A stretch of DNA of 64,000 nt from an uncultured Polaribacter sp. (lineage in GTDB: Bacteria > Bacteroidota > Bacteroidia > Flavobacteriales > Flavobacteriaceae). This document shows positions 2,573 to 17,825 of the stretch, in pieces. Made by a program: the position numbers and the translations under genes. A model generated the notes under the pieces. That model was not told the DNA's origin and did not search any database. It worked only from the letters and a program-made list of their open reading frames with translations. How positions within the stretch are numbered: position 1 is the stretch's first letter; every line of letters begins with the position of its first letter. The DNA is taken from positions 1-64,000 of the forward strand of contig CALKEB010000022.1 in NCBI GenBank assembly GCA_938084845.1, in the 5' to 3' direction.

Positions 2573-2575
2573 AAT

Positions 2576-3769
2576 TTGAAAAGACGAACCTTTATTAAAA
2601 AATCAGGAATTGCTACAGCTGGAATACTTACAACTAACTCAGTATTTGGAAATCTATCTCATCTAAAATCTAGTTCTAGTGACTCTGTTAATATTGGTGT
2701 TATAGGAACTGGACAAAGGGGTACTGGATTAACCTCTATAATTAATAAAATTGATGGATTAAGAGTTGTTGCTACAGCTGATGTAATACCTTTTCGATTA
2801 CAAAATGGGCTGAAAAAAGCAAATTCGAATCCAAAAGGATATGGTAATTATAAAGCACTTTTAGAGAATAAAGATGTAGATGCTGTTATTATAGCTACTC
2901 CATTTAACACGCATTCTAAAATAGCAATTGATGCAATTGATGCTGGTAAACATATCTTTTGTGAAAAAACGTTAGCCAAAGGCTATCATGGTATTCAACA
3001 ATTGATCAATAAAACTAAAGAATCTAAAACTATTTTTCAAACAGGACATCAATATCACAGTTCTAGGTTGTACACTTATGTTTTCGATTTAATTCGTCAA
3101 GGAAAAGTTGGAAATATTTCTGCTTTTGAATGTCAATGGAATAGACACGGAAACTGGAGAAGAAACGTACCAAACCCAAGTTTGGAGAAAGCCATAAACT
3201 GGAGAATGTACAGAGAGTTTTCTGGTGGATTAACTGCAGAATTGTGCTCACATCAAATTGATTTTGTAAACTGGGTTTTAGGGGAAACTCCTGAGCAAGT
3301 TATGGGAGTTGGAGGTATTGATTATTGGAAAGACGGAAGAGAAACTTATGATAATGTGCACTTAACCTATTCTTATGCAAATGGTGTTAAAGCAAAATTT
3401 TCTTGTTTAACTAGCAATGCAAAAGATGGCTATCAAATAAAAGTTTTAGGAGACAAAGGAACTATTATTATAGATACTAAAAATGCTTGGTTTTATCCTG
3501 AAGGAAAGAAAAACAAAGTAATGGGTGAAGTGGATGGTGTTAGTGGTGCAACTGCACAATGGGATAAAGCAAAAGGTTACAATATTAACATAGAGCATTT
3601 AGACCCAAGTAAGCAGGCTTTATTAGATTTTAAAAATGCAATTATAGACAATAAAACGCCTTTATCTAATATTACTTCTGGTGCTAAAACTGCGGTTTGT
3701 GTACAAATGGCTTTAGACGCTATGTATGATAATAAAATTGTAAAATGGAATGATAATATTGTATTTTAG
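2576..3769 (+). CDS. Second exported Gfo/Idh/MocA family oxidoreductase (TTG start)
   Basis: A 397-aa paralogue of the preceding gene. It begins with a Tat-like signal (KRRTFIKKSGIATAGILTT). The Rossmann motif is VNIGVIGTGQRG near residue 39. Where most family members have EKP this one has EKT (GKHIFCEKTLAKG), a change at the position that normally contacts the nicotinamide. The gene begins with TTG one codon after the upstream stop and in the same frame (TAA AAT TTG); no ATG is available before the signal peptide. It converges on the 411-aa lyase-like gene with only 22 bases between them. The two oxidoreductases could act in sequence, for example oxidation and re-reduction around cleavage, which is inference. 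Confidence 0.86.
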   Translation: MKRRTFIKKSGIATAGILTTNSVFGNLSHLKSSSSDSVNIGVIGTGQRGTGLTSIINKIDGLRVVATADVIPFRLQNGLKKANSNPKGYGNYKALLENKDVDAVIIATPFNTHSKIAIDAIDAGKHIFCEKTLAKGYHGIQQLINKTKESKTIFQTGHQYHSSRLYTYVFDLIRQGKVGNISAFECQWNRHGNWRRNVPNPSLEKAINWRMYREFSGGLTAELCSHQIDFVNWVLGETPEQVMGVGGIDYWKDGRETYDNVHLTYSYANGVKAKFSCLTSNAKDGYQIKVLGDKGTIIIDTKNAWFYPEGKKNKVMGEVDGVSGATAQWDKAKGYNINIEHLDPSKQALLDFKNAIIDNKTPLSNITSGAKTAVCVQMALDAMYDNKIVKWNDNIVF

Positions 3770-3791: not shown

Positions 3792-5027
3792 TTAATCATT
3801 TAAGAAATTCAAAGGAGGATATTGTAAGACCTCAAGTGCTGTTAAATACTGATGAAATTTAGAGTTATCATCTATTAATTGCTTTTTTAAAAGGGTGGAT
3901 GCTTTTGAAAACATAGGTTTCATTTCTGTGTTCATTGTATGTAAAACACCACCATAAGAAATTTCTTTGTAAGGCCATTTTTCTGGTTGATTAACATATT
4001 TGTTCAGATAAAAAAACGCTTGCCTTAATGAACGCTTATCTTCTGTTTCAAAACTCCATAAGTCTACTCCTAACTTCTTTCCAATAAATGTTAATTCTGA
4101 TAATGACCAAAGATTTAAAGATGAGTAATGTACAGATCTAGTTCTACCCATTTCTTTAGGCTGTCTTCCATCTGGTAAAATTTGAGTTGCTATTCTATTA
4201 TACTTGGCATTTTCAATAATTTGTTTCGCTTCTTTTGTGCGATTTAAGTAAATTAATAAACCAACAACTTGATGATTAAAGTGGTTTGCATGATTTTGTC
4301 CTGTGTTACCTGCTTCAATAGCCATTTCATTAGTGAGTAGCCAGTTTAAATATTGTTCAAACCAATTTTTCATTTCACTTTTTATATCATCGGTAAGCAT
4401 ATTAGCATTTTCGAAAATTTGTAGTGCAGTTATTATATGATACTGATTTAACCACTCTTGCACACCAGCTTTTCTTCCTTCTGCTGCTCCAGGAACAGCT
4501 TGTCCAAAATTTATATTTGGATTTACTTTGGTGTCTTCTTTGATGTACCAAATTCTAATTAACTCAATTGCCTTATTTGCATATTTTTCTTCATCTGAAT
4601 AATAAAAAACCCATCCCAAAATTTCAATAGTTTTAAAAAATTCTGAAGTTCGTTTAAAATCGGTATCATATCCTTGAGAAATAGGATTAATAATACCATC
4701 TCTAGTTAACCAAGGCAACCCATTTATTTTTGTAGGATCAGGCCATTTGTAAGGCGCATAACTTAAGTAGTCGTGTTTATTTTTACTTGCAGGAATTCTA
4801 GTTTTGTTGACAACAGAATTTGCCTTAAAACCTAAAGTTTCATCTGCTTTTTTTTGTAGAATTTGATATTTACTAAAAAAGTAAGGATGTTTTTCCTTTA
4901 TTTTCTCTTTAACTTGAGCATTTAATGATGCATCAAAATATATTAATGATAACTTTTTCTTATCGTGTTTTTCACAACTTTGAAAAAGTAGTAACGTGAA
5001 AAAAAGAGTAAATGATTTTAGTTTCAT
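3792..5027 (-). CDS. Alginate_lyase-domain (PF05426) lipoprotein, possible PL38/PL5-like uronan lyase
   Basis: A 411-aa lipoprotein with signal peptide and lipobox (LLFQSCEKHD). The body is the alpha/alpha-toroid alginate_lyase fold, recognisable by YLSYAPYKWPDPTKING and DGIINP near residues 88-115 and by GQNHANHFNHQVVG near residue 240, which carries the Asn/His residues typical of the catalytic cleft. Its length of about 400 residues fits stand-alone families with this fold such as PL38, which cleave alginate or glucuronan. In this locus a glucuronate-containing substrate is more likely than alginate. It lies 18 bases downstream of the 637-aa gene, so both probably share the operator-linked promoter at about 6.98-7.02 kb. 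Fold assignment is good, CAZy family uncertain. Confidence 0.72.
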   Translation of the reverse strand: MKLKSFTLFFTLLLFQSCEKHDKKKLSLIYFDASLNAQVKEKIKEKHPYFFSKYQILQKKADETLGFKANSVVNKTRIPASKNKHDYLSYAPYKWPDPTKINGLPWLTRDGIINPISQGYDTDFKRTSEFFKTIEILGWVFYYSDEEKYANKAIELIRIWYIKEDTKVNPNINFGQAVPGAAEGRKAGVQEWLNQYHIITALQIFENANMLTDDIKSEMKNWFEQYLNWLLTNEMAIEAGNTGQNHANHFNHQVVGLLIYLNRTKEAKQIIENAKYNRIATQILPDGRQPKEMGRTRSVHYSSLNLWSLSELTFIGKKLGVDLWSFETEDKRSLRQAFFYLNKYVNQPEKWPYKEISYGGVLHTMNTEMKPMFSKASTLLKKQLIDDNSKFHQYLTALEVLQYPPLNFLND

Positions 5028-5045: not shown

Positions 5046-6959
5046 TTAACTTACAGAAATTGTAATTCTTAATTCATCATTATTTACAAAAGATACTTCT
5101 AATGGCAAAGCCTCAACACCTGGTACCATATTAAAGGTTCTTTTCCCTGAAATTTCTTTGGTTTTAATTGGTGCATTTGCCTTAATAGTTACTAATCCTT
5201 CAGGTTTTTTAATGGTAATTTCAGTATCGCTAATAGCAGTCACAACTTCGCTTGTAGGAGATACAATTGGTAGCACAAAAGCAGTTTTTTCAATAATATC
5301 CTGTATTGAATTTACTTTAATTTCTGTTTCATTAAAAGAACAATTATAAACAATATCAAACTCAGAAGCAGTACCCGTAATTTCTTTTCTGTCTACATTT
5401 TTTAACTTCGTATTTGCTACCAATTTAATAGTGCCATTTTCATCACTAGAAGCAACAGTTGCTGGCAAATCGTATAAGTTTGTGTACCAAACATTATCCT
5501 TAAAGACCTCAACTCTTGGAGTTAAACAAATGTCTTTCCCTGGTTGTGGTTGTTGATTATTTTTTTCAACCAAATGATATTCTGCCATACTTGCAGCACA
5601 TAGAAGTCCTACTTTGTTATGATACAAAACTCCTAATGCACCACCAGAAGCTTGACGATAATCTTCTTTATAATGATATTCTGCATCGTAGGCACTTACA
5701 GTACCTCGCCAATCTCCTCTTGCAAAAAGATACACGTCTAAATCTTTAAAGTGTTTTACACCATCTGTAGTTGCTCTAGGTAAACTTGCATTTGCATTTA
5801 TTTCTGGTAAATGATCCCAATGATCTAATAAGGCTGCTAATGGTTTTGCGTGTGTAAACGTATGATGCACGCAAGGTGGAATACCTGCTTCTATAAAACC
5901 AGGACCTCCATGAATTAAGCCATCTGCTGTGCATCTTTGTAATAATTCTGTGTTTTTTATTGCTGCTGTTCCAAATGCTGGATTGATATTGGCCATCATA
6001 CCAAATGCTGGCTGACTACCATCACAAGTTCTACTTCCCCAATAACTCCATTTGTACATTCTGTTACCCCAACTATTATCCCAACCACCATCAGGTAACA
6101 TAAATTCTAAATGACTGTTTAATGACTTTGTTAAAATTTGTAGAAGCTCTTCGTCTTTTTTCTTTAAAGCATACATTACCAAACTATTTAAAGTTTCCTC
6201 TACATTATATCCTAAATCAACACCATGTAATCCTTTTTCACTTAATTTACTTGAGCTCTTTTTACATTCACCAAACAACAAACCTTCGTTAGGCGTAAAA
6301 TACGCTTTTACTTGTTGCGCTAATTCTTTACTCTTGGCTTTAAATTCTTCTCTATTTACAACTCCTCCTATTAAATCCAACCCATAAACTGCAGTTCCAG
6401 GATAATTGATGTTGGTAAAGTCTATGGTAAAGGTGTCATAAATATATTGTCCTGCTTTTTCTAAACGAATTATCCATGCTTTACGAGTTTCTTCGTCTAA
6501 AACATGCCCATGATAATGTAACGCTTCTGCTAGAGCAATTGCTCCAAAAATGGTAATTCCTTTCCAAGATTTTGGATTTTTAATCACTGTCCAAGCTCCA
6601 TTTTCTTGAGAAACATTATTTTCTGCCCAAAGCATGACTAATTTAGCACCTTCTATATATTTTTCATCGCCAGTTTTATCTGCCATATATAAAAAAGGAT
6701 ACACAGCATCCATACATCTTCCATGAATATGCGAGCAAGAAGGGCAACCCAAAGCACCGTGAACCTCTAAATTAGATGGCTTATTGATTTGTACATTTAG
6801 CATTCCATCACTCCAATCTTTTAATAAACCTGAAATTAAGTTTTTAAATTCCAAAGAATGTTCTGGATGATCTGCACAAGACTGAAATAAACCTGACATT
6901 GGCAATGACAAACCAACACCAGCTAATGTAGAAAGTTGTAAAAAGTTACGTCTTTTCAT
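5046..6959 (-). CDS. Exported protein of unassigned family, probable alpha/alpha-toroid polysaccharide-active enzyme
   Basis: A 637-aa protein. Its N-terminus combines a Tat-like start (MKRRNFLQLSTLAGVG) with a possible lipobox (SGLFQSC), so it is exported and perhaps lipid-anchored. Residues about 50-420 look helical, with a conserved-looking Cys/His motif (CPSCSHIHGRC near residue 73), a Trp-rich stretch (GGWDNSWGNRMYKWSYWG) and HHTFTHAK near residue 365. The last 200 residues look like beta-sandwich. This layout recalls heparinase-type lyases, but I do not recognise a named family. Ulvan loci are known to hold lyases of this general shape and an oligosaccharide dehydratase, so either role is possible. 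It is the first gene of a two-gene unit with its own CAGGA operator. Confidence 0.55.
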   Translation of the reverse strand: MKRRNFLQLSTLAGVGLSLPMSGLFQSCADHPEHSLEFKNLISGLLKDWSDGMLNVQINKPSNLEVHGALGCPSCSHIHGRCMDAVYPFLYMADKTGDEKYIEGAKLVMLWAENNVSQENGAWTVIKNPKSWKGITIFGAIALAEALHYHGHVLDEETRKAWIIRLEKAGQYIYDTFTIDFTNINYPGTAVYGLDLIGGVVNREEFKAKSKELAQQVKAYFTPNEGLLFGECKKSSSKLSEKGLHGVDLGYNVEETLNSLVMYALKKKDEELLQILTKSLNSHLEFMLPDGGWDNSWGNRMYKWSYWGSRTCDGSQPAFGMMANINPAFGTAAIKNTELLQRCTADGLIHGGPGFIEAGIPPCVHHTFTHAKPLAALLDHWDHLPEINANASLPRATTDGVKHFKDLDVYLFARGDWRGTVSAYDAEYHYKEDYRQASGGALGVLYHNKVGLLCAASMAEYHLVEKNNQQPQPGKDICLTPRVEVFKDNVWYTNLYDLPATVASSDENGTIKLVANTKLKNVDRKEITGTASEFDIVYNCSFNETEIKVNSIQDIIEKTAFVLPIVSPTSEVVTAISDTEITIKKPEGLVTIKANAPIKTKEISGKRTFNMVPGVEALPLEVSFVNNDELRITISVS

Positions 6960-7008
6960 TTGGAAGTATTTTAAGTAAGGAAATTAAACAGATACTATGT
7001 AAAACCTA

Positions 7009-7023
7009 TCCTGTTTTATCCTG
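7009..7023 (-). promoter_or_regulatory. CAGGA-N5-CAGGA operator upstream of the 637-aa gene
   Basis: Read on the - strand, two CAGGA half-sites begin exactly 10 bases apart (CAGGATAAAACAGGA). The site ends 50 bases before the start codon. A weak -7-like element TTAATTTC follows after 21 bases, at 6980-6987. The same arrangement occurs at four other promoters of this locus. Direct repeats spaced one helical turn apart are typical of AraC-type or response-regulator activators; the regulator is not in the window. Confidence 0.75.
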
Positions 7024-7090
7024 TTTTATATAATCAAAAAGTCCAAAAAAAAATTTTCTTTTAGACTAGTAAAGATATTTTTATTTCGGT

Positions 7091-9529
7091 TTATTGAATT
7101 ACTAATTTTGTATGATATACTTTATTAGTTTCTTTTGATACTACTTTTACCATGTAAACTCCTGTTTCAAATCTCTTTTGGTTTTTTATTTCTATAAATT
7201 CAGTATTAACTTTTTCTGAATGAACAATTTTACCTAAAAGGTTATATATCAAAATAGTTGCACTATTGATATTATTAAGTTTTAACATAAAGTTACCATT
7301 AGATGGATTTGGATAAATTTTTATTGATGAATGAATAGTATTATTAAGATTTTCAAGACTTAAGGTTGTTGATTCAGGAATCCATTTACTTCTATCATCT
7401 GTATTTGATGAATGTGTCATTGATCCATCAGATTCATGATATAAAAATCTGTCACTAGTTCTTGTGGCAAAACTAAAACTACCATCGTTGTTTGCAATTA
7501 CTCTCCAAATTTTATCCACATTAGTATTTGGTGATCCAAAATTAGTACTTACTAATCCTGGATTGGAAGCACCTCCTGTAAATCTGATTATCCCTCTAAC
7601 CTCGCTATCAATATTATAATAATCAAATCCAGGAACCTCTGCCTTAACAAATTGCCATTCTTTATCTGAGCCTTCATCTGAATCACTCGCTATTATAGAA
7701 GATCCTGAAGATGTTAAATATTTACCTGTGGCTACATTTTTTAATCTGTAAATATCGCCAGATAAATCATTAGCATTTCGTCTAAAAACTTCTATATTAA
7801 TTTCTTGAGATGATACTGTTGCATTGTTTTCATCATAAGCAATTGCTTTTATAGTATATGTTCCTTCTATATCTGGTGTGTAATTTACAGTATATGGGCT
7901 TGTAGTATCTTCTTCAAAAATTTGGTTGTTAATAATAAATTCTACTTTAGAAACACTTCCATTATTATTAAATGCTTCAGCTGAAATTTCTAACGGTTTA
8001 TCTACTTCATAACTTTCATTGTTTATAGGAGAAATTAGAGATACTTGAAACGGACTATTATCTATACCTAAATCTATTATGTGTAAATACAATGGTCTTT
8101 GATCTCCAGTAGATTGTTCCATCATATAATAATAGAGCTTACCATTACTTACATAGGCTCTACCATGACTAAATTGTTTCCCTGAGGTTGCTTCATAAAC
8201 TTTCCTAAAATTATTAGTACCTCCCAAAGATTGTTCTATATAAATTCTACCTGAATTTAACCTAATCATATAAATATTGTTTCCAGAGGTAAATAAACGA
8301 TTTCCTCCTATAAAATCAGTAGAGGTGGTAAATTCTGAATCTCCAGCCTTTTGAAAAGTATGTACATTTTTAGTAATATTATTTTCATCATCTCTAACCC
8401 TACCTATAATATGTACATCACCTCTTTCTGTAATTGTCCAGTCAAAATTACCAACCATATATACTTGGTCTTTTTGGGTAGTTGTGACCAAATCTCCTGG
8501 TTCGTAAACCAATATTTTATCTGCATTTCTTAAAGGTGTAGTAAAACTTTCTCCTTTATAGTTTTTCCAACCAGTTTGTCCACTTTGGTCATCTGAATAT
8601 GCAAAATAAAACCCATTTTGATACAAGTATCTATCATTGGTATTTGATGACCTTTTTTGAAAACCAATTGCTATTTTCCCTCCAACAAATTGCAATCTAC
8701 CATACATTCCCCAGTTATATGGTTCACCAAAATTTTTTGCGTTTTTATCTGCAAATTTTATAAAATTTGACCAAGTTGATGTATTCGCATCATATTTTGC
8801 AAAATGATAACCTCCATTAGGACTAGATCCTTTTCTCATAGAAAAAAACAAATCTCCTTGAGTATTTAAAAAAAACTGAGGATATGTAAATTCTGAAAAA
8901 GCGTTATAATCTATCGCTCCATTTAAACTTAGATGTGTATAATCTCCTGCTCCACTATCTTCTACAAATTGGTCTATTGTAAACTCTTCATCAGGCAGAT
9001 CTGCAACATTTTTTTTAGAATAAGAATATCTAAAATAATCATTTGCCAAACTACCATTTGTTGGTCTTGTTCTTGAGTATGCATGCATATCAAAAAGTAA
9101 ATGTATGGTACCATCTAAAGGGCTAACACCTATACCAATTGTATTGTGAGATTCTCCTATATACCATACATTTCTAAAACCTGTATGTTTATGAGGAAAC
9201 TCGATTGTTTTTTGAGTTCCTGTTTCTGTATTATAACGTGTTAACATCATATTACGATTTTCTTTACCTCCTTTGTACCAAGTCATAAACACATAATTCT
9301 TGTATGTAAATATACAATCGCCATGGGCAGAAATTTGAGGTCCAAATGCATAATCGTATCCTGTGGTTGAGTTTGGTGCTGTGTCAGAAGTAACTTTATT
9401 ACCATCAAAATGTAAGGCTATGTCTGTAATTTTAATTTCTTTCTCAAATGTAACTTGCGCCTTCAATGAAAGATTAAAGAAAAGTATGAGTAGAATACTT
9501 TTTAAAAAAATATATAGATTATTATTCAT
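7091..9529 (-). CDS. T9SS-secreted BNR_4 beta-propeller ulvan lyase-like protein (PL24/PL25 type)
   Basis: About 812 aa from the ATG at 9529, which begins a good signal peptide (MNNNLYIFLKSILLILFFN, cleaved after KAQ); an ATG six codons earlier would place charged residues before it. Residues about 20-480 form a BNR_4 propeller with the family signature GESHNTIGIGVSPLDGTIH and FDMHAY, the region that carries the catalytic His in PL24/PL25 ulvan lyases. An Ig-like domain follows (about 490-580), then a trefoil-like module (IYRLKNVATGKYL, about 585-720), and last a T9SS sorting domain (IKIYPNPSNGNF to the end). It probably cleaves ulvan at the cell surface or in the medium. PL24 and PL25 cannot be told apart by eye. 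Confidence 0.8.
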   Translation of the reverse strand: MNNNLYIFLKSILLILFFNLSLKAQVTFEKEIKITDIALHFDGNKVTSDTAPNSTTGYDYAFGPQISAHGDCIFTYKNYVFMTWYKGGKENRNMMLTRYNTETGTQKTIEFPHKHTGFRNVWYIGESHNTIGIGVSPLDGTIHLLFDMHAYSRTRPTNGSLANDYFRYSYSKKNVADLPDEEFTIDQFVEDSGAGDYTHLSLNGAIDYNAFSEFTYPQFFLNTQGDLFFSMRKGSSPNGGYHFAKYDANTSTWSNFIKFADKNAKNFGEPYNWGMYGRLQFVGGKIAIGFQKRSSNTNDRYLYQNGFYFAYSDDQSGQTGWKNYKGESFTTPLRNADKILVYEPGDLVTTTQKDQVYMVGNFDWTITERGDVHIIGRVRDDENNITKNVHTFQKAGDSEFTTSTDFIGGNRLFTSGNNIYMIRLNSGRIYIEQSLGGTNNFRKVYEATSGKQFSHGRAYVSNGKLYYYMMEQSTGDQRPLYLHIIDLGIDNSPFQVSLISPINNESYEVDKPLEISAEAFNNNGSVSKVEFIINNQIFEEDTTSPYTVNYTPDIEGTYTIKAIAYDENNATVSSQEINIEVFRRNANDLSGDIYRLKNVATGKYLTSSGSSIIASDSDEGSDKEWQFVKAEVPGFDYYNIDSEVRGIIRFTGGASNPGLVSTNFGSPNTNVDKIWRVIANNDGSFSFATRTSDRFLYHESDGSMTHSSNTDDRSKWIPESTTLSLENLNNTIHSSIKIYPNPSNGNFMLKLNNINSATILIYNLLGKIVHSEKVNTEFIEIKNQKRFETGVYMVKVVSKETNKVYHTKLVIQ

Positions 9530-9592
9530 GCTAATTTTTTTAAACAAACTCAGTCAATTAAATTAAAAATGACTAAGATTGTATTACGATTG

Positions 9593-9600
9593 CAAACTAT
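9593..9600 (-). promoter_or_regulatory. -7-like element of the BNR ulvan-lyase gene
   Basis: ATAGTTTG on the - strand matches TAnnTTTG at seven of eight positions. It starts 21 bases after the CAGGA operator at 9622-9636, the same spacing as at the + strand PL28 lipoprotein gene. No clear -33 element is present; the operator occupies that region, which suggests dependence on an activator. Confidence 0.5.
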
Positions 9601-9621
9601 GGCATTTTAATCATAAGCATA

Positions 9622-9636
9622 TCCTGAAGTGTCCTG
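9622..9636 (-). promoter_or_regulatory. CAGGA-N5-CAGGA operator upstream of the BNR ulvan-lyase gene
   Basis: Read on the - strand: CAGGACACTTCAGGA, half-sites 10 bases apart. The leader to the chosen ATG is longer (about 93 bases) than at the other four genes, but the distance to the -7-like element is the same. Confidence 0.78.
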
Positions 9637-9674
9637 ATATTAAATTTTTAGTAATGAATAGTTTTTAAAAAAAA

Positions 9675-9698
9675 AGTCAATACTTAATTGTACTGACT
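9675..9698 (-). terminator. Rho-independent terminator after the modular PL28 gene
   Basis: A 9-bp stem (9675-9683 with 9690-9698) closes a 6-base loop. The single mismatch on the + strand is a G-U pair when transcribed on the - strand, where the hairpin is followed by a long T run. It therefore serves the upstream - strand PL28 gene that stops at 9759. Confidence 0.75.
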
Positions 9699-9758
9699 TT
9701 TACTTATTGTAAGAATGTTATTCTTTAACTTTTTTTGATAAAAAACAGAATTTTAATT

Positions 9759-11765
9759 TTATCTTATTATCAATTTAGTATGATATACTTTACTATCTCC
9801 TGATATTGCTTTTATTAAATATATGCCTGGAGTTAAGTTGTTATTATTATCAAATTTAATATCTCCTGTATTAGTTTTTTCTTTGTAAACTACTTTTCCA
9901 AATGTATTATAAATAATGACATCAGCTTCAGAAATATTACTCAAAGCAATAGTAAAAATATTCTTTGCAGGATTAGGGTAAACCTTTAAACTAGCATTAT
10001 CTAATAAATTATCTGATACACTTAAAGATTGACTTGTTGGTATAGCCTCCCATTTACTTCTATCATCATCTGCAGAAGCAATAGAATGCGTTACAGAACC
10101 ATCTGCATTATGATATAAAAATCTTCCTGCAGTTCTTGATTCAAACCTATACGTATCTTCAGATTGATTATGATAAATAGTCCATGTTTTATCTGTATCA
10201 CTTGCTGGCGGGGCTTTTGTAGTACTAACTATAACATAAGCGCCTCCTGGACCTCCTGAACCTGGAGCTCTTAAAATACCACCAACTTGACTATCAATAT
10301 TAAAGTAAGATCCACTCTCAACAAAAGTCCAATGTGTATTTGTTGGCTCTCCTGAATTTGTCATACTAACAGCAGTTGCACTTGAACCTGCATCAGTTAA
10401 GAATTGTCCAGTAGCGACATTTCTCAATCTAAAAACATCATCAGATGGTGTAAAAGTATCACCAGTATCTTCAACTTCCACTTTCTGATAAGTAGTATTT
10501 GCCCATCTAAATTGAGCTCTTCCACCTCTTACTCTATAAGCTCCATATCTAATACCAGATTCTAAACCTCTTTCTGGTTCAGGAATATTATAATTAAAGG
10601 CTTCTCCTCCAATTATGGCATCACAATAATGGATTTTTTTTGAAATATCATTAGGATCTTGTCTAAAACCTACCTCTAAAACAAAATCAACTTCCTCATT
10701 CTTATTTACTCTTTTTAAGAAAACAGTTTCTCTACCACTACCTTCTCCTCCTCTTTCTAAAATTCTTTCTGCGTAAATATCAAAAGCTACTTGCTTACCA
10801 GCATTTACTCCATCTCCATAAACAGGATGAGCTCTATATAAAAGAATTGCAGGATCACTGGAACCACCACCACCTGAATGTTTTCCTTTTGCCTGTGTTA
10901 AATAACTTCCACTTGAACTAAAAGAACCAGTATCCCCAACCTCTAATATTCTAAATGTTCCTGTAAATCTTGCATAACTACCAACACCTGTTTCTCCAGA
11001 CCTAGGTAAAGAACGCTCTATTCTTGGTTGTAATGTAGCTCCATCCCAATGGTTTGAACCTGCAGTAATATTATAAACACCCCAAGTTTTACCGTTAACA
11101 CTACTTTCTGAATAGTCTGAATAACAACTTCTATCATCAACAGTACCAACATTCACTGAATTTGGTATATCCACATTTCTGGTATTATCGTTTTGAAATT
11201 CACCAGAAGATAGACAATTTAAATCTGTACTGGTATCTTCATCTGGAGCTACCACTACTGGAGTTTGCACATAAGGAATGAGCTTCCAGTTACTTCTATC
11301 ATCTATATCTGCCACTACTGAATGTGTAACTGTACCATTTTCTTCATGATACATAAACCTACCTGTAGTTCTAGATCCAAATCTATAAGTATCATTAGTA
11401 TCATTATGATATATTGTCCAAGTTTTATCTGTATCACTCGCTGGTGATGACTTAGTTGTACTAACTACAACATAAGGGCCTCCTGGACCACTAGCTCCAG
11501 GTGCACGTAAAATACCAAGAGTTTCACTATCGATATTGTAATATGAGCCACTTTGAACAAATTTAAAATGAGTATTAGGGGAATCACCTGTATCTGACAT
11601 AGTTACAGCTGTTGCACTTGAGCCTGCATCAGTTAAAAATTTTCCTGTAGCTACATTTTGTAATCTAAAAACACCATCAGATGGTGGTGTATCTTGTGCT
11701 TTAATACTATATGAACATAATGTTAACGCGAAGAATATTAATAATTTAAAAATACTTTTTTTCAT
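9759..11765 (-). CDS. T9SS-secreted PL28-like ulvan lyase with two trefoil-like modules
   Basis: A 668-aa protein: signal peptide to residue 24 (SYSIKAQ), trefoil-like module 1 ([13 protein letters not shown], about 30-165), catalytic domain (about 190-425), module 2 ([13 protein letters not shown], about 438-575) and a T9SS sorting domain ([12 protein letters not shown], 588-668). The catalytic part matches what I know of PL28 ulvan lyases: [47 protein letters not shown] and [16 protein letters not shown]. The Lys and Tyr in the last two motifs are candidates for the catalytic pair proposed in that family (inference). The modules are near copies of each other and related to the one in the BNR protein; they probably bind the polysaccharide. 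It has its own operator and terminator, so it is probably monocistronic. Confidence 0.83.
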
Positions 11766-11820
11766 GACTCAATATATTATAAAACTCTAGTAAAATTCAA
11801 ATTTATAGTCAGATAAAGTA

Positions 11821-11835
11821 TCCTGACCTGTCCTG
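11821..11835 (-). promoter_or_regulatory. CAGGA-N5-CAGGA operator upstream of the modular PL28 gene
   Basis: Read on the - strand: CAGGACAGGTCAGGA, both half-sites perfect, 10 bases apart, ending 56 bases before the start codon. A -7-like TGAATTTT (11792-11799) follows after 21 bases; a perfect TAAATTTG also lies at 11798-11805 with a 15-base gap, so which one is used is open. Confidence 0.78.
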
Positions 11836-11933
11836 AGCTACTTTATTTTAAAGGTATTTTAACATTTAATTTGATTGTTTTTACTAGGAATTCAATCTTA
11901 AATAATTTGATGACAAATTCTTTTTATGAAATA

Positions 11934-14900
11934 CTAATCAACTATATTTATAACTACTGGGCCAATTAAGCCAGATTTTTCCAATTCAGTTTCATTATTT
12001 TTTGGACGAGCTGTTGTCCAAGTTTTCTTAGAATTCTTTGGTCTTTCATTATCAAAAATTAATTGATTACGCCAAGTGTTTGTAACTTTTATTTCTAGTT
12101 TGTTATTCCCAATTTGAATTTTATCAGTAATATCAAATACAAATGGTGGAGCCCATTTTACACCAACTTTTTTACCATTACACCATAACTCTGCAATGTT
12201 GGCAACTTCTCCTAAATCGATAGTTTTAGATTTCCCTAATTCATTTATTTCAAAAGTTTTAGTGTAAGTTATAGTTCCTGAATAATGTTGAACAGCTTCG
12301 TTTTCTAATTCTGTTAACGATTTTAATTTATTAATTTCTATAAATTTTGGAGTATCCCATCCTTTGTCAAAAGACAATTTCCAATTGTTTTGTAACAATA
12401 TTTTTTTAACTTTAATTGACTTTACAACTTCTTTTCCTGTTTGATGAAAGGTGTAATCTCCAGACTTTGATGCTTTAACATCGTCTTTATCCCAAGATAT
12501 TTTTGAGTAATCATTTGTTTTATGAATTTGATACCACTCTGTTTTGGCATCTAAAATAGTTTGGTTATTAGAGGTTATTTTTGATGCAAGTGGTTTTGCA
12601 TCACTTTTAGAAAACACAATAATTGTACTTCCATTTTCGGGTAAAGAAACAGCAACATTTGTTCTACCATTTGTGGTTTTCCAAACTTTAGCATCTTGTT
12701 GAATTCCTGTAAACGCATCCCAAATTTGTGGACTTAAATTTTGTATTCTAAAACTTAATGACACGTCAACTGGATGTTCTTCTTTAGAAGCCATAAAATA
12801 GATATGAGCATCTTTTGTTTCTCTGTGAATCCAATTGATATCTAGATCTTCAGAGACAATTACGTCTTTGGCTATTTTTTCTTCTTGTAAAACATTCTCA
12901 ATCGTTTGTCCCCAATAAACTCGACCTTTTCCAAATTGTCTTACGCCGATTTTGGTGTTACCCCATAATTCATCAGTAATTGATTTTAATTCTTCCAAAT
13001 CATTTTCATCATCCATTAAACTTGGCGAATCTTTAGGTTTATCACCCAAAATAACAGCTCCATTTGTAACCAATTCTTTTAGTTTTTTTGCTGTAGATAA
13101 TAATATGCTTTCTGAATCTCTTAGTTTGATAATTCGATAATCGCCTCCATTTTCTACGTGAATTTTATCCTCTTTAATACTGATTTTTTCTTGTAATATT
13201 TCTGCATTTAAATAATCAAATCTGTATCCTTTTGGGAATTCATCTAAATCAAATGGTGGACGTTCAAAATGATCTCCATAATACCACAACACATCTGCCA
13301 CATATTCTCCTTGTTGCAAAACATATTGATTTCTAGACAAATACTCAATCCAATCTGGCATGTATTGCCACCAAGTTTGCTGACGAACAAAAGGAAAACC
13401 AATATTCCCACCAAAACTAGAACCTGGATTTACATCTGTTTGTGGTGTATGAGAAAACGTGTGAAATACCAAGTGATTGACTCCTTTTGCAAAATTATAA
13501 TCGATTAAATATTTTACGGAAAAAGGATGCTCATTCCACTTTACACCAACTTGTGTACAAGCTTCTGCAGCCAATTTTGGTTTATTGTATAAATGTGTTG
13601 CTGAAGCTGCATTGTAAATTGGTTTTGCATATTCATTTTGATCTGATGGTGCTTTTGGATACCAAAATTCTGTCATCGGAATGTCACTTACACCATAATA
13701 TCGCATGGGATCTATAGGTAACACCTCTCCGCCAGCACCTTCTGTATAAACTTCTGCGCCCATTTCGTGTGCAACTGTTGCAAAATGCTTGAAGAAATTA
13801 TCAATAAAAACCTCATCCATTGTTTGGCGTAAATCTCTTAAAAACTTGGTTGTGGTTGCTGTGCTTTCTACAATATAACCCATTGTAGCCGGGAGATATT
13901 TTTTTAAACTATACCCTCTTCTTTGTTCAAACTCTTTGAACATATCTTCGGAATTGATTGTCCAAGTTGGCACGTGACTTTCCCAACTATCAATTAATAA
14001 GCCCTGTAATTTTCCATCTCCAATTGGACCTCCATCTTTTATTAAATTTCCAATCATTCCTTTTTTTAAATGATTTTCTATGGCAACTTTATCGAGTTTA
14101 GAAGATTCCCAACCTGTTGCTTCTGGCACTGCTGGCTTATTTGTCAAACGCATATTGATGTGTCCAAAACGTACAATTGTCCAATTTCCTTCTGGTACAT
14201 TCCAAGTTAGTTTTCCATCAGCAGATAATTTATCTGTTAAGTTGATGATTGTCTCAGGCTTTATGATAGTATTTTCTGCATAATTATACAGTACTTCTTT
14301 CTTTAAACGTCTTAATACTTTTGCTGCTTTTGCTTCATGATTGTGCAATTTGGGTTTAGCACTTAATCTTATGGATTCTGGAGCAATAGCGTGTTTTCCT
14401 AAAAAAGTAAATTTAAAATCTTTAGCTGTTGTTTCTGGAACGGCTAAGGTCAGGTATTTGCGTCTGTCATTCCAATTGGCATCTGGTATTTTTAAAGTTG
14501 TTATTTCTTGTAACTTATTATTGATAAGTGCCTCTACTTTAATGGCAACTTCCACTCTTGGATAATTTGTACCTGTTATAATATGACGTAATTGAGGGAA
14601 AACAATTGATCTTAAAGTGATTTCTTTATCAAACGAGGTTTTTACCCAAGTTTCTTGGTTCTGTACTTTTGAAATCCCTAATTCTCTATACTCTTTTAAA
14701 GGTTTGTCTAAACGTGTTGTTTTTCTTGTTACAATTAATTTTGAATTTGGACTAAAAATATCTTGCCAAGGAACTAGCCTATTGTTTGTTTCAATTTTAG
14801 ATGGATTGTATGGTTTTAAATCATCGCCTGATAAAGTTGGAAAAGCAAGCAACTGAATATCTTTATAATCGTAATCTACAATGTGATATAGGGAATCTAT

Positions 14901-15392
14901 CTGCAAATTTTCTTGAAACTGTTTACCTCCTGAAATATGATACGTAGTTTCAACCACCTCACGTTGCGCCTCATTTGCAGGAACCCAAGGACCACCAGTC
15001 ATAGACCAACCAGGACAATTTTGCATAGTAAATTTTAATCCTAAACGTTTGCATTCATCAGCAGCAAAACGAATCATTTCCTCCCATTCTTGGGATAAAA
15101 TTTTAATAGGTTTTACATTAGGGAAAGTACGACCTGCTTTATTAAATAAATGAATTCCCTGTAAACCAGCATCTTTAATAGCTTGTAAATCTAACTTTAA
15201 TCCTTCTTTACTAATGTTGTTTCCATTCAAATGAAACCAGGTTTCTGGATGATATTTTTTTGATGGAGATTTGAAGTTTTGTGATAATTTTTCTAAACCT
15301 ATTTCAGATATTACCTCTGTAGTTTCAGATATTTTTGGCTGACAACTTAAAAATGAAACTAGAATAAAGTAGTTTAAAAATTTAATTTTCAT
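11934..15392 (-). CDS. GH106-like alpha-L-rhamnosidase, lipoprotein
   Basis: A 1152-aa protein with lipoprotein signal (ILVSFLSCQP). The N-terminal and central parts match the GH106 family (PF17132): WFHLNGNNISKEGLKLDL near residue 50, FTMQNCPGWSMTGGPWV near 130, LLIDSWESHVPTW near 475 and PFVRQQTWWQYMPDW near 675. The Glu in DSWE is a likely active-site residue, by analogy. The last ~150 residues form a GH2-type sugar-binding sandwich (AELWCNGKKVGVKWAPPF). Rhamnose is the main sugar of ulvan, so this enzyme fits a role in removing rhamnose from lyase-released oligosaccharides. It is anchored facing the periplasm or outside. It has its own CAGGA operator 52 bases upstream and no partner in its transcription unit. 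Confidence 0.84.
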   Translation of the reverse strand: MKIKFLNYFILVSFLSCQPKISETTEVISEIGLEKLSQNFKSPSKKYHPETWFHLNGNNISKEGLKLDLQAIKDAGLQGIHLFNKAGRTFPNVKPIKILSQEWEEMIRFAADECKRLGLKFTMQNCPGWSMTGGPWVPANEAQREVVETTYHISGGKQFQENLQIDSLYHIVDYDYKDIQLLAFPTLSGDDLKPYNPSKIETNNRLVPWQDIFSPNSKLIVTRKTTRLDKPLKEYRELGISKVQNQETWVKTSFDKEITLRSIVFPQLRHIITGTNYPRVEVAIKVEALINNKLQEITTLKIPDANWNDRRKYLTLAVPETTAKDFKFTFLGKHAIAPESIRLSAKPKLHNHEAKAAKVLRRLKKEVLYNYAENTIIKPETIINLTDKLSADGKLTWNVPEGNWTIVRFGHINMRLTNKPAVPEATGWESSKLDKVAIENHLKKGMIGNLIKDGGPIGDGKLQGLLIDSWESHVPTWTINSEDMFKEFEQRRGYSLKKYLPATMGYIVESTATTTKFLRDLRQTMDEVFIDNFFKHFATVAHEMGAEVYTEGAGGEVLPIDPMRYYGVSDIPMTEFWYPKAPSDQNEYAKPIYNAASATHLYNKPKLAAEACTQVGVKWNEHPFSVKYLIDYNFAKGVNHLVFHTFSHTPQTDVNPGSSFGGNIGFPFVRQQTWWQYMPDWIEYLSRNQYVLQQGEYVADVLWYYGDHFERPPFDLDEFPKGYRFDYLNAEILQEKISIKEDKIHVENGGDYRIIKLRDSESILLSTAKKLKELVTNGAVILGDKPKDSPSLMDDENDLEELKSITDELWGNTKIGVRQFGKGRVYWGQTIENVLQEEKIAKDVIVSEDLDINWIHRETKDAHIYFMASKEEHPVDVSLSFRIQNLSPQIWDAFTGIQQDAKVWKTTNGRTNVAVSLPENGSTIIVFSKSDAKPLASKITSNNQTILDAKTEWYQIHKTNDYSKISWDKDDVKASKSGDYTFHQTGKEVVKSIKVKKILLQNNWKLSFDKGWDTPKFIEINKLKSLTELENEAVQHYSGTITYTKTFEINELGKSKTIDLGEVANIAELWCNGKKVGVKWAPPFVFDITDKIQIGNNKLEIKVTNTWRNQLIFDNERPKNSKKTWTTARPKNNETELEKSGLIGPVVINIVD

Positions 15393-15443
15393 ATTATAGA
15401 TTTTTTTAAAATTTAAAGAAACTGCTTTGGATTATTAAACACA

Positions 15444-15458
15444 TCCTGCTGACTCCTG
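15444..15458 (-). promoter_or_regulatory. CAGGA-N5-CAGGA operator upstream of the GH106-like gene
   Basis: Read on the - strand: CAGGAGTCAGCAGGA, half-sites 10 bases apart, ending 52 bases before the start. A T-rich -7-like element (TTTCTTTA, 15414-15421) follows after 22 bases. It is divergent from the operator of the PL28 lipoprotein gene about 100 bases away. Confidence 0.75.
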
Positions 15459-15560
15459 AAAATGATGTTTTTTTTCCTAATTTTCAAATAGGGCAGACTT
15501 CTTTTAAATTTTTTTTGTTAACTAAACACATGATCTTGTTATGATAAAATCATCATCTAT

Positions 15561-15575
15561 CAGGACACCTCAGAA
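15561..15575 (+). promoter_or_regulatory. CAGGA-N5-CAGAA operator upstream of the PL28 lipoprotein gene
   Basis: On the + strand: CAGGACACCTCAGAA. The first half-site is perfect, the second has one change, and the 10-base spacing is kept. It ends 50 bases before the ATG at 15625. This is the only + strand copy and always points towards its gene, so the site is directional. Confidence 0.75.
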
Positions 15576-15596
15576 CAGTTAAGTTATAGTAAACCT

Positions 15597-15604
15597 TACC
15601 TTTG
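15597..15604 (+). promoter_or_regulatory. -7 promoter element of the PL28 lipoprotein gene
   Basis: TACCTTTG is a perfect match to the Bacteroidota -7 consensus TAnnTTTG. It begins 21 bases after the operator at 15561-15575 and lies 20 bases before the ATG. The operator covers where a -33 element would be. Confidence 0.75.
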
Positions 15605-15624: not shown

Positions 15625-16584
15625 ATGAAAAAATTAAAATCCAATTTCAAACTTATTTTAACACTAGTATTAATAGTTTTTATTTCCTTCTCTTCTTGTA
15701 CAAGAGATGGTCTTGAGCTCTACTCTGAAGACTTCTTAATTCATGACACATCAGATTCTGACCCAGATCCTGACCCAGATTCTGACTCAGATTCAAATGC
15801 TGCAGCTGAAGCTGAAGATGAAGACACAGGTTCTTACACAACATGTAACCCAGAAGGTGAAAACGCTACTAGAACATCAAATGATTTACCAAACCCTGTA
15901 AATGTCGGTACTATTGATGACAGGACTTGTTATGCTAACTACAAAGAAAGTACAATTGATGGTCTTACATGGGGTATATACAATATTACTGCAGGTTCTA
16001 ACAATCAAGATGCACCAAATACCTTACAACCTAGAATGGAACGTTCATTACCTATAGCGAATGTGAACATAGGCTCATTTGTGAAATTTAATGGAGATTT
16101 TAGAATCCTTGAAGTTGCAGATAATGGCGTTTTTGGTCAAAGTGGGACTTACATTGCACAAGCCAAAGGACAACACACAGGTGGAGGTGGTTCTCCAGAT
16201 CCTGCAATTTGTTTATATCGAGCACATCCCGTATACGGTACAGGTGTTAATGCTGATAAGCAAGTAGCCTTCGATATTTATGCAGAGCGTATTTTAGAAC
16301 GTGGTGGTTCTGGTAGCGGTAGAGAAGTTGTTTTTCTAAAGCAAGTTGATAAGAATGAAATAGTTTCATTTGAAATGAAAGTAGGTGTTAAAGAAGATCC
16401 TAATGATGCAACAAAAAAAATACATTATTGTAATGCTATAATTGGAGGAGAAGCATTTAATTGGGATATTCCAGAAGCAGAAAGAGGTACACAATCTAAA
16501 ATTAGGTATGGTGCATATCGCGTTAGAGGTGGGAGAGCACAAATAAGATGGGCGAATACCACACATGAAAGAGTTCAAAAATAG
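15625..16584 (+). CDS. PL28-like ulvan lyase, surface lipoprotein
   Basis: A 319-aa lipoprotein with signal peptide and lipobox (FISFSSCTRDG). After the cysteine comes an acidic linker of Asp/Pro/Ser (about residues 43-70), similar in composition to the acidic export signals of Bacteroidota surface lipoproteins though further from the Cys. The rest (about 90-319) is a single PL28-like domain with the same motifs as the modular paralogue: [54 protein letters not shown] and [16 protein letters not shown]. It lacks the trefoil modules and T9SS tail. The pair suggests one enzyme released and one tethered, dividing initial attack and trimming of ulvan. It has its own operator and promoter and is divergent from the GH106-like gene. 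Confidence 0.83.
   Translation: MKKLKSNFKLILTLVLIVFISFSSCTRDGLELYSEDFLIHDTSDSDPDPDPDSDSDSNAAAEAEDEDTGSYTTCNPEGENATRTSNDLPNPVNVGTIDDRTCYANYKESTIDGLTWGIYNITAGSNNQDAPNTLQPRMERSLPIANVNIGSFVKFNGDFRILEVADNGVFGQSGTYIAQAKGQHTGGGGSPDPAICLYRAHPVYGTGVNADKQVAFDIYAERILERGGSGSGREVVFLKQVDKNEIVSFEMKVGVKEDPNDATKKIHYCNAIIGGEAFNWDIPEAERGTQSKIRYGAYRVRGGRAQIRWANTTHERVQK
15751..15798 (+). repeat. 12-bp tandem repeat coding for an Asp/Pro/Ser linker
   Basis: Four imperfect 12-base units (first TCAGATTCTGAC) lie inside the PL28 lipoprotein gene and encode an SDSDPDPDPDSDSDS-like linker. The unit length keeps the frame, so slippage would change the linker length only. Confidence 0.8.
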
Positions 16585-17453: not shown

Positions 17454-17699
17454 TTATTCAACAATTAGTTTAGATAAATAAGTATCTTGATTATTATCAA
17501 TTACCTTTACAAGATATATACCTTTAGAAAAACCATTGATATTTATTTCTGAGTTATCTACTATATTTTTTTTATCGAAAACTAATTTCCCTAAATAATT
17601 ATAAATTTTAACAGAAACTTTATCAATGTTGTTTAACTTTAAACTGAAGCTTTCTCTTGCTGGATTTGGGAATATTTTTATTGATGATCTGTTTAAATT
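17454..17699 (-). pseudogene. Orphan T9SS C-terminal sorting domain (headless gene remnant)
   Basis: About 82 residues of a Por-secretion/T9SS type A sorting domain: SIKIFPNPARESFSLKLNN, VKIYNYLGKLVF, KGIYLVKVID, ending LSKLIVE. There is no signal peptide or passenger domain; going upstream the frame runs straight into the terminator and the gene of tRNA-Gln, which cannot be coding. It closely resembles the tails of the BNR and PL28 proteins of this locus. The likely reading is that a deletion removed the body of a secreted enzyme and joined its tail to the tRNA. Confidence 0.75.
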
Positions 17700-17710
17700 T
17701 TCTTTTTGAA

Positions 17711-17747
17711 ATAAAAATACCCTTAAAATCAAATGATTATAAGGGTA
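17711..17747 (-). terminator. Terminator of tRNA-Gln
   Basis: An 8-bp stem (17718-17725 with 17740-17747) continues, after one mismatch, into a 4-bp stem and a 4-base loop. On the - strand it is followed by TTTTTAT. It lies directly after the tRNA 3' end. Confidence 0.8.
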
Positions 17748-17753
17748 CTTTTG

Positions 17754-17825
17754 TTGGCCTACAAGGACTCGAACCTTGAATGTCGGTACCAAAAACCGGT
17801 GTGTTACCAATTACACCATAGGCCA
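17754..17825 (-). tRNA. tRNA-Gln (anticodon TTG)
   Basis: On the - strand the sequence starts TGGCCTATGGTGTAATTGG. It folds into a full cloverleaf: acceptor TGGCCTA/TAGGCCA, D-arm GTGT/ACAC-like, anticodon loop TTTTGGT (anticodon TTG, reads CAA), and T-arm CAAGG-TTCGAGT-CCTTG. The outermost anticodon-stem pair (C-A) is mismatched. CCA is not encoded. Confidence 0.93.

What the first reader, a model, noticed from the sequence alone, without database searches (positions are those of the whole stretch)
7009..15575. A shared CAGGA-N5-CAGGA operator defines an ulvan regulon inside the locus
Five promoters (7009-7023, 9622-9636, 11821-11835, 15444-15458 on -, 15561-15575 on +) each carry two CAGGA half-sites exactly 10 bp apart and pointing to the gene. 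Nine of ten half-sites are perfect. A -7-like element follows after 21 or 22 bp in every case, so the site sits where a -33 element would be. A tandem site one helical turn apart in place of -33 is what an activator needs. No regulator gene is in the window, so the signal defines a regulon whose master protein is elsewhere.
Basis: seen in the sequence. Interest (0 to 1): 0.85.

Follow-up and report, generated by a model that had tools for sequence, protein, structure and literature searches.

The report
Rhamnose-linked operator controlling ulvan genes
A short repeated DNA switch sits in front of genes with which this marine bacterium digests green-seaweed ulvan, and the same switch stands in front of rhamnose-sugar genes in related bacteria, pointing to one sugar-sensing protein that probably controls the whole programme.

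Summary
In detail: four exact CAGGA-N5-CAGGA sites in the window (0.03 expected) plus one with a single mismatch, all intergenic and facing ulvan-locus genes. The proposed genome scan supports a regulon: six exact sites genome-wide, none inside an ORF, reversed control zero. Relatives sharpen the operator to two 8-bp units CAG(G/T)AYA(G/C), head to tail, 10 bp apart. In 102 of 142 sites a TAnnTTTG -7 box lies exactly 22 bp after the core; all 98 sites between co-directional genes face the gene start. The regulon is wider than ulvan: the L-rhamnose operon carries the operator in most relatives examined, with ulvan lyases, rhamnosidases, sulfatases, SusC genes and glucuronate catabolism. The best candidate is a GntR protein with a LacI-type sugar-binding domain, usually divergent from the rhamnose operon: 155 refined sites fall in 42 genomes with it, 16 in 157 without; all 28 genomes with three or more sites have it. 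The related HTCS clade is missing from three motif-rich ulvan-lyase genomes; DeoR genes were not found in the window's genome. That this GntR protein binds the repeat, and that it activates, is inferred.

The parts
7006..7023 (-). operator A, CAGGATAAAA-CAGGATAG, upstream of the 637-aa gene 5046-6959
   Evidence: exact CAGGA-N5-CAGGA; 6 of 6 homologous genes compared have a site within 1 mismatch (those loci had been fetched around sites)
9619..9636 (-). operator B, upstream of the BNR/PLH30 ulvan lyase gene
   Evidence: exact match; 7 of 8 homologous genes have a site (loci fetched around sites)
11818..11835 (-). operator C, upstream of the PL28 ulvan lyase gene with trefoil domains
   Evidence: exact match; PL28 genes fetched without reference to the motif: 21 of 22 with a site within 1 mismatch of a degenerate consensus
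15441..15458 (-). operator D, upstream of the GH106 rhamnosidase gene
   Evidence: exact match; only 1 of 4 GH106 homologues compared has a site directly upstream
15561..15578 (+). operator E (one mismatch), upstream of PL28 gene 15625-16584, divergent from D
   Evidence: PL28 set
15597..15604 (+). -7 box TACCTTTG (6/6) of promoter E, 21 bp after the 15-mer
6979..6986 (-). weak -7-like box (4/6) of promoter A at +22
   Evidence: position supported by 102 of 142 sites
9592..9599 (-). -7-like box TAGTTTGC (4/6 of TAnnTTTG) of promoter B at +22
   Evidence: fits the TAnnTTGY variant
11791..11798 (-). weak -7-like box (4/6) of promoter C at +22; a 6/6 match lies at +15
15414..15421 (-). weak -7-like box (4/6) of promoter D at +22
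5046..6959 (-). 637-aa protein, no Pfam, NCBIfam or PDB-sequence match; first gene behind operator A
3792..5027 (-). PF05426 Alginate_lyase-family protein, second gene behind operator A
7091..9547 (-). ulvan lyase (BNR_4, PLH30 beta-trefoil, T9SS tail); best PDB matches 'Short ulvan lyase' 6byp and Uly1 7drq/7czh
9759..11765 (-). PL28 ulvan lyase with PLH30 trefoil domains and T9SS tail
11934..15392 (-). GH106 alpha-L-rhamnosidase
15625..16584 (+). PL28 ulvan lyase (PDB 6d2c, 6d3u)

Best explanation
The CAGGA pairs are operators of an L-rhamnose-centred regulon. The operator is 18 bp: two 8-bp units CAG(G/T)AYA(G/C), head to tail, 10 bp (about one helical turn) apart, at about -49 to -32 of a sigma-A promoter whose -7 box TAnnTTTG starts 22 bp after the CAGGA-N5-CAGGA core. 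The most likely binder is a GntR-type winged-helix regulator with a LacI-like sugar-binding C-domain, encoded divergently from the rhamnose operon (contig C19, with a paralogue on C69 beside ulvan-type genes). Proposed working: ulvan lyases and rhamnosidases free L-rhamnose; a permease takes it in; the sugar or an early catabolite binds the regulator; the regulator occupies the tandem units and contacts RNA polymerase at the class II position, turning on ulvan lyases, rhamnosidases, sulfatases, SusC/D, glucuronate genes and the rhamnose operon together. Shown here: operator, spacing, orientation, regulon content, co-occurrence with the regulator gene. Inferred: that this protein binds the operator, what the effector is, and activation rather than repression.
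For: Own genome: 6 exact sites, reversed control 0; refined pattern with up to 2 mismatches 18 against 1. Targets there: sulfatase, GH3, GH78, SusC/D, a UxuA/KduI operon, BNR ulvan lyase, rhamnose operon. Refined pattern in 199 family genomes (198 genera): 155 sites in 42 genomes with the GntR clade, 16 in 157 without; 28 of 28 genomes with 3 or more sites have it. All 47 genomes with the bifunctional rhamnulose-1-P aldolase/dehydrogenase gene have a GntR relative, 42 close (best copy 46% identity or more to the C69 protein), 5 diverged (38-42%). A rhamnose-type site lies upstream of that gene within 2 mismatches in 37 of 48 copies; 4 of the 5 diverged-GntR genomes have none within 4 mismatches. 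In 80 loci found with GntR as query, 74 have an intergenic site and 133 of 140 sites are intergenic. Direction: 98 of 98 co-directional intergenic sites face the gene. Spacing: 102 of 142 at exactly +22; 40 of 40 aldolase promoters with a site. Sensor: LacI-type fold by model and Foldseek.
Against: GntR regulators are generally thought to bind palindromes (recalled); the operator is a direct repeat (unselected positions 6-8 against 16-18 correlate 0.78, 0.87, 0.98; best inverted axis 0.34). GntR-family AusR of Zobellia is a repressor (seen in citing papers). The aldolase gene and a GntR relative always go together in the sample, so co-occurrence cannot separate GntR from another rhamnose-linked factor; looser GntR relatives (E 1e-40 or better) occur in 81 of 199 genomes. 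Four clade-positive genomes (G075, G121, G154, G173) lack the strict pattern; their rhamnose-promoter matches have 4, 1, 3 and 3 mismatches. G127 has the clade and six sites but none at its diverged aldolase gene. In 80 GntR loci, 67 of 744 upstream windows of other ORFs also score within 2 mismatches, though these windows include other regulon genes. Of the 133 intergenic sites only 85 have a -7 box of 5/6 or better at the expected spacing. An HTCS gene lies beside one GntR copy on C69. The window's -7 boxes are weak. No expression or binding data.
Confidence: 0.68

Rival explanations
1. The same GntR regulator binds the operator but represses: it blocks RNA polymerase over the -33 region and lets go when rhamnose or a catabolite appears.
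For: GntR-family FucR is listed as a sugar regulator of Bacteroides (PMC3878776, passage) and AusR of Zobellia is a GntR-family repressor (PMC8286568 and PMC8073546, passages); the operator would cover the -33 region.
Against: One exact spacing to the -7 box in 102 of 142 sites and one orientation in 98 of 98 are more than a blocking protein needs; most window -7 boxes are weak.
Confidence: 0.3
2. The hybrid two-component system on contig C69 (1348 aa, AraC-type output), or another HTCS, is the master and senses ulvan oligosaccharides, as HTCS proteins do in other polysaccharide loci.
For: It is the only HTCS-sized gene among 3 HTH_18 genes found in the window's genome and shares a contig with a motif-bearing ulvan lyase operon; its clade occurs in 10 of 13 PL28 genomes and itself co-occurs with the motif (Fisher p 1e-10 for two or more sites).
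Against: Clade absent from G045, G070, G132 although they have PL28 and 4-8 refined sites, and from 15 of 28 genomes with 3 or more sites; the site also fronts rhamnose operons in Flavobacterium; HTCS motifs seen in print are direct repeats of 14-16-bp sites with 5-6-bp spacers (PMC3878776, passages). Caveat: only the 3 best candidates per genome were scored, and HTCS proteins of other clades exist in those genomes.
Confidence: 0.06
3. An unlinked regulator of another family that happens to track the rhamnose operon binds the site.
For: Operator geometry fits winged-helix proteins other than GntR; DeoR-type RhaR sites are direct repeats with 10-11-bp period (PMC3870299, passage).
Against: HTH_DeoR not found in G000, G070, G132, G145, G163, all with the motif, though found in 11 of the 17 genomes searched. 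Among the 22 most widely shared gene clusters of the 80 GntR loci no second regulator was recognised: 10 were scanned with Pfam (one unmatched 150-aa protein), the others judged by N-terminus or earlier scans. Those loci were chosen by GntR.
Confidence: 0.15
4. The sites are a chance or composition artefact.
For: At 2 mismatches the window count equals chance; 17 of 33 one-mismatch hits in the genome are inside ORFs, about the total of the reversed control, 15.
Against: Exact sites 4 against 0.03 expected; conservation and positional constraints across genera.
Confidence: 0.01

Closest known systems
DeoR-family RhaR rhamnose regulators (e.g. Chloroflexus aurantiacus RhaR; PMC3870299, passages)
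   Same: Control rhamnose catabolism; direct-repeat operators with 10-11-bp period, in Chloroflexus four tandem units
   Different: Different protein family; HTH_DeoR not found in the window's genome and four other motif-bearing genomes; the Chloroflexus protein is a repressor
Bacteroides RhaR (BT3768, AraC family; PMC3870299 and PMC3878776, passages)
   Same: Rhamnose operon regulator in the same phylum; direct repeat; activator
   Different: AraC family, 21-bp period, a single target operon; here 10-bp period, GntR candidate, many targets including ulvan genes
AusR of Zobellia galactanivorans, GntR repressor of alginate genes (original paper not held; passages in citing papers)
   Same: GntR-family regulator of an algal polysaccharide system in a marine flavobacterium
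   Different: Alginate, repressor; its operator and domain architecture were not seen here
AraR-type GntR regulators (GntR wHTH plus LacI-like sensor; recalled; PDB entry 4egy matches the DNA-binding domain)
   Same: Domain architecture
   Different: AraR operators are palindromic and AraR represses (recalled); here a direct repeat at a fixed promoter position
PhoB-type class II activation on tandem 11-bp repeats (recalled)
   Same: Head-to-tail repeats one turn apart, in place of the upstream promoter element, fixed spacing
   Different: No receiver-domain protein implicated; different sequence

Membership tests
GntR-family regulator with LacI-type sensor (the candidate protein) | N-terminal GntR winged helix | tested here: met
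   PF00392 above cut-off in the C69, C19 and L165 proteins
GntR-family regulator with LacI-type sensor (the candidate protein) | C-terminal periplasmic-binding-protein/LacI sensor fold | tested here: met
   Foldseek top hits are LacI-family and ribose-binding proteins, TM-scores about 0.5-0.7 (model of the L298 protein, mean pLDDT 85, pTM 0.66); Peripla_BP_3 above cut-off in 2 of 3 copies scanned
GntR-family regulator with LacI-type sensor (the candidate protein) | Palindromic operator (usual for the family; recalled) | tested here: not met
   Operator is a 10-bp direct repeat; that this operator belongs to the protein is itself inferred
HTCS-controlled polysaccharide utilisation locus | The HTCS present wherever the operator regulon is | tested here: not met
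   Clade missing in G045, G070, G132 and in 15 of 28 genomes with 3 or more sites; HTCS proteins of other clades were not tested
HTCS-controlled polysaccharide utilisation locus | Direct repeat of 14-16-bp sites with 5-6-bp spacer | tested here: not met
   Period is 10 bp; no conserved block one or two turns outside the 18-bp site apart from the -7 box; published examples
DeoR-type RhaR regulon | DeoR-family regulator gene | tested here: not met
   No HTH_DeoR match in G000, G070, G132, G145, G163; G000 is 83% complete
L-rhamnose regulon | Operator at rhamnose catabolic genes | tested here: met
   NCBIfam names rhamnulose-1-P aldolase/dehydrogenase and L-rhamnose mutarotase above cut-off, L-rhamnose isomerase below cut-off; RhaT among target genes and in 31 of 80 GntR loci; sites upstream
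Class II activator promoter | Operator near -41 at fixed spacing and one orientation | tested here: met
   -7 box at -12 to -5 taken from F. psychrophilum (PMC9723704, passages)
Class II activator promoter | Activation shown by transcription | not testable with these tools
   no expression data at hand

The most novel reading that the evidence does not exclude
A GntR/LacI-sensor protein that reads head-to-tail 10-bp units and acts as a PhoB-like class II activator: one cytoplasmic monosaccharide sensor runs the whole path from secreted ulvan lyases through SusC/D uptake to rhamnose and glucuronate catabolism, so that in these ulvan degraders an oligosaccharide-sensing HTCS is not the master switch.
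Probability: 0.4. Interest if true: 0.75.

Novelty: new variant of a known kind. Interest (0 to 1): 0.62.

Why it matters
Ulvan loci of marine Bacteroidota have well-described enzymes, but the listings and passages seen here showed no described operator or master regulator for them. A concrete operator, a named candidate protein and a predicted inducer make ulvan induction testable at once, and would link a monosaccharide regulator to a whole polysaccharide programme. A GntR protein on direct repeats at a class II position would extend what that family is known to do, and the operator offers a candidate inducible promoter for flavobacteria.

Tried and rejected
HTCS as master: disfavoured on co-occurrence. 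DeoR-type RhaR: disfavoured on absence. Stand-alone AraC regulators: the two in the own genome have no recognisable carbohydrate gene in the ORF lists around them, judged by reading N-termini, not pursued further. A palindromic reading of the operator: best inverted axis 0.34 against 0.95 for the direct repeat, the latter inflated by the selected CAGGA letters. Loss of a -33 element in regulon promoters: inconclusive, because 98 non-regulon TAnnTTTG promoters showed no clear TTG peak either. Separating clades by the GntR recognition helix: uninformative, the SRDTV-type motif is largely shared. Long arrays as the rule: rejected, exact triple units in 4 of 397 genomes; eight looser arrays of 3-6 units in the fetched loci. 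An RNA element was considered and set aside, since the site lies upstream of the predicted start.

Limits of the counts: the loci were mostly fetched because they hold sites or GntR genes, so site numbers there are not unbiased; intergenic share, spacing and direction are less affected, though relatives are not independent. The PL28 set was fetched without the motif; of 25 PL28 hits, two are the window's own and one (L050) had too little upstream DNA, leaving 22; one of the 21 positives (L045) is a poor match overlapping the gene start, and the one miss (L066) is a fragment. Homologues of polA and one other control gene were not among the loci, so that call has no control. Own-genome one-mismatch hits, recounted: 16 of 33 outside ORFs (one of them reaching into an ORF start, L030), 17 inside. 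Of the 15 clear upstream sites, 12 front a recognised carbohydrate gene or operon; the others front the 637-aa gene, an unassigned 296-aa ORF divergent from a sulfatase (C7:7918) and a small unassigned ORF (C26:782). The GntR clade was drawn at a gap (genome best copies 46% identity or more, next 42% or less, bit scores 339 against 254), the HTCS clade likewise (979 bits against 751). Genes behind sites: 85 of the 131 listed were scanned; own-genome genes (scanned elsewhere), most aldolase genes and a few others were left out.
Full report
WHAT WAS CLAIMED AND WHAT IS THERE. The window carries four exact CAGGA-N5-CAGGA sites (7009-7023, 9622-9636, 11821-11835, 15444-15458, all on the minus strand) and one with a single mismatch (15561-15575, plus strand). 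Exact matches expected in shuffles: 0.03; none of 100 shuffles had four. All five lie between genes and face the next one. The genes behind them are a 637-aa protein of no recognised family followed by a PF05426 protein, a BNR-type ulvan lyase, two PL28 ulvan lyases and a GH106 rhamnosidase. At two mismatches the count is chance level (25 against 25.1), so only near-perfect sites carry the signal.

GENOME SCAN. The genome (2.06 Mb in 70 contigs, 83% complete) has six exact sites, reversed control zero: four in the window, one before a sulfatase, one before a GH3 gene. With one mismatch there are 33 hits against 15 for the control: 17 inside ORFs of 100 aa or more and 16 outside, one of these reaching into an ORF start. 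Of the 15 clear upstream sites, 12 front a recognised carbohydrate gene or operon: four window genes, a sulfatase, a GH3 gene, two GH78 genes, a SusC/D array, an operon with UxuA and KduI followed by TRAP-transport genes, a 3-keto-disaccharide hydrolase and a BNR ulvan lyase. The other three front the 637-aa window gene, an unassigned ORF divergent from a sulfatase, and a small unassigned ORF. The refined pattern CAGKAYAGNRCAGGATR with up to two mismatches gives 18 hits against 1, adding among others the rhamnose operon on C19 and a GH43 gene on C50, but also a hit inside polA (25608).

SHAPE OF THE OPERATOR. From fetched loci (1.217 Mb, 91.5% coding) 164 distinct sites within one mismatch were found, 145 intergenic and 19 in ORFs; 142 were used for a profile. 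Beyond the selected CAGGA letters, conservation appears at positions 6-8 and 16-18, so the unit is CAG(G/T)AYA(G/C)NN repeated once with a 10-bp period. Unselected positions 6-8 against 16-18 correlate 0.78, 0.87, 0.98; the best inverted-repeat axis gives 0.34. A TAnnTTTG box with at least 5 of 6 letters starts exactly 22 bp after the 15-mer in 102 of 142 sites; other offsets have five or fewer, except 12 at offset zero. In the window this box is weak: 4/6 at +22 for A-D, 6/6 at +21 for E. In F. psychrophilum the box lies at -12 to -5 (PMC9723704, passages), which puts the 18-bp operator at about -49 to -32. With a 17-letter consensus (up to one mismatch) over a wider set of loci, 190 sites are outside ORFs and 5 inside; 98 lie between co-directional genes and all 98 face the gene start, 88 lie between divergent genes, 4 had no neighbour on one side. 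Eight arrays of 3-6 units occur; exact triples are rare, 4 of 397 genomes.

WHAT THE REGULON IS. PL28 genes, fetched by Pfam search without reference to the motif, were found in 13 of 199 family genomes. Of 22 usable PL28 genes outside the window's genome, 21 have a site within one mismatch of the degenerate consensus CAGKANNNNNCAGGAYR, one of the 21 poor; none of 34 window ORFs beyond 17 kb has one within two mismatches. Among 85 of the 131 first genes behind sites (43 and 42 scanned) are 11 GH78-type rhamnosidases, 9 PL28 domains, 14 PLH30 trefoil proteins, 10 sulfatases, 10 TonB-receptor plugs, at least 4 GH106 and one RhaT rhamnose symporter (the family tables are cut at 25). The most widespread member is the rhamnose operon, headed in most of these genomes by a bifunctional rhamnulose-1-phosphate aldolase/dehydrogenase gene (NCBIfam). 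That gene occurs in 47 of 199 family genomes. Upstream of its 48 copies, a rhamnose-type site lies within 2 mismatches in 37 and within 4 in 42; the six others are one contig edge (G002), G127, and four genomes with a diverged GntR (G020, G024, G037, G108). In nine of the ten loci looked at in detail, eight of them Flavobacterium by title, a site lies some 300-1000 bp before GntR on the other strand, at the head of a divergent gene; the tenth (L312) has none. The window's congener G131 has no PL28, no exact or refined site, no GntR of the clade and no aldolase gene.

WHICH PROTEIN. On contig C69, which also carries a motif-bearing lyase operon, lie an HTCS (1348 aa) and a GntR protein (346 aa); a second GntR of the clade lies on C19, divergent from the rhamnose operon. 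The HTCS clade (41% identity or more) is in 16 of 199 genomes and missing from G045, G070 and G132, ulvan-lyase genomes with 5, 8 and 4 refined sites. The GntR clade is in 42 genomes, including all 13 with PL28. Refined sites (CAGKAYRNNRCAGGATR): 155 in those 42, 16 in the other 157; reversed-pattern control 8 in all 199; 28 of 28 genomes with three or more sites are GntR-positive, 13 of 28 HTCS-positive; Fisher p for two or more sites 7e-26 for GntR, 1e-10 for HTCS, treating genomes as independent. HTH_DeoR was not found in five motif-bearing genomes including the window's. A search of named genomes with the GntR alignment gave 80 loci: 71 have the aldolase gene within 9 kb, 69 of them on the opposite strand to GntR; 40 of the 71 have a site within 3 mismatches upstream of it, and in 40 of 40 the -7 box is at the expected spacing, while 67 of 744 upstream windows of other ORFs in these loci score within 2 mismatches; 74 of 80 have a site outside ORFs within 2 mismatches, 133 of 140 sites are outside ORFs, and 85 of the 133 have a -7 box of 5/6 or better at the expected place. 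The gene families most shared by these loci besides GntR are the sugar kinase (71 of 80), isomerase (70) and aldolase (70), then lactate-utilisation genes and RhaT. The predicted structure joins a winged helix to a LacI-type sugar-binding domain.

HOW IT PROBABLY WORKS. Fixed spacing, fixed direction and a centre near -40 are what an activator touching RNA polymerase needs; I put activation ahead of repression, but not by much, because GntR-family AusR is a repressor. Rhamnose or an early catabolite is the likely signal, by the company the gene keeps. Binding of this protein to this operator was not tested and would be unusual for the family, whose operators are, from recall, palindromes. The tight linkage of GntR with the rhamnose operon means co-occurrence cannot exclude another rhamnose-linked factor.

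KNOWN WORK. Bacteroides RhaR is an AraC activator with a 21-bp-period motif and a single target operon; DeoR-type RhaR regulators use 10-11-bp direct repeats (PMC3870299, PMC3878776; passages). HTCS motifs seen in print are direct repeats of 14-16-bp sites with 5-6-bp spacers (PMC3878776, passages). Paper searches on ulvan with GntR, rhamnose or regulon gave listings in which I saw no description of this operator or of a GntR rhamnose regulator in flavobacteria; I opened only passages of PMC3870299, PMC3878776, PMC12125979, PMC8511951, PMC12323373, PMC9296495, PMC9723704, PMC8286568 and PMC8073546. The library lacks most subscription papers, and the AusR paper itself was not held.

VERDICT. 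The operator and the regulon are real. The regulon is a rhamnose regulon that includes ulvan genes. The likely master is a GntR/LacI-sensor protein outside the window, not an HTCS. Novelty: a new variant of a known kind.

Noticed in passing
L098:5965-11191 (own contig C69): An HTCS and a second GntR/LacI-sensor gene lie side by side next to sulfatase, GH2, PF05426 and GH106 genes; a two-mismatch site lies before the GH2 gene. The same HTCS-GntR pair occurs in L178.
   Followed up: partly
L187:7523-8644 (G044); G070:C8:127469-128584: A more distant GntR paralogue (33-34% identity) is followed directly by a triple-unit array in two ulvan-lyase genomes; in G163 a similar paralogue (C5:171433-172404) has a site upstream of its own start (C5:172551). 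It may be a second sugar regulator within the regulon.
   Followed up: no
L162, L164, L165, L166, L167: The rhamnose GntR gene is present as two tandem copies (59-78% identical to the own C19 protein), which could form heterodimers and might explain an asymmetric, direct-repeat operator.
   Followed up: no
L176:6916-6975 and L301:2818-2877: Six-unit arrays of the 10-bp repeat; in L176 the array lies about 60 bp before a gene start. The number of units may tune promoter strength.
   Followed up: no
57934-63772: Right end of the window: two short-chain dehydrogenases and a cupin next to 427-aa and 753-aa ORFs, perhaps another uronate or alginate-type cluster; no CAGGA pair within two mismatches there.
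   Followed up: no
51-3769: A 3-keto-disaccharide hydrolase gene followed by two GFO/IDH/MocA oxidoreductases just beside the ulvan genes, without a CAGGA pair within two mismatches.
   Followed up: no
5046-6959: 637-aa protein with no Pfam, NCBIfam or PDB-sequence match; homologues 79-86% identical stand behind an operator in all 6 relatives compared (loci fetched around sites). It could be an undescribed ulvan enzyme.
   Followed up: partly
17454-17810: Short ORF (118 aa) that is mostly a type IX secretion sorting domain, possibly the remnant of a secreted enzyme.
   Followed up: no
   Followed up: no
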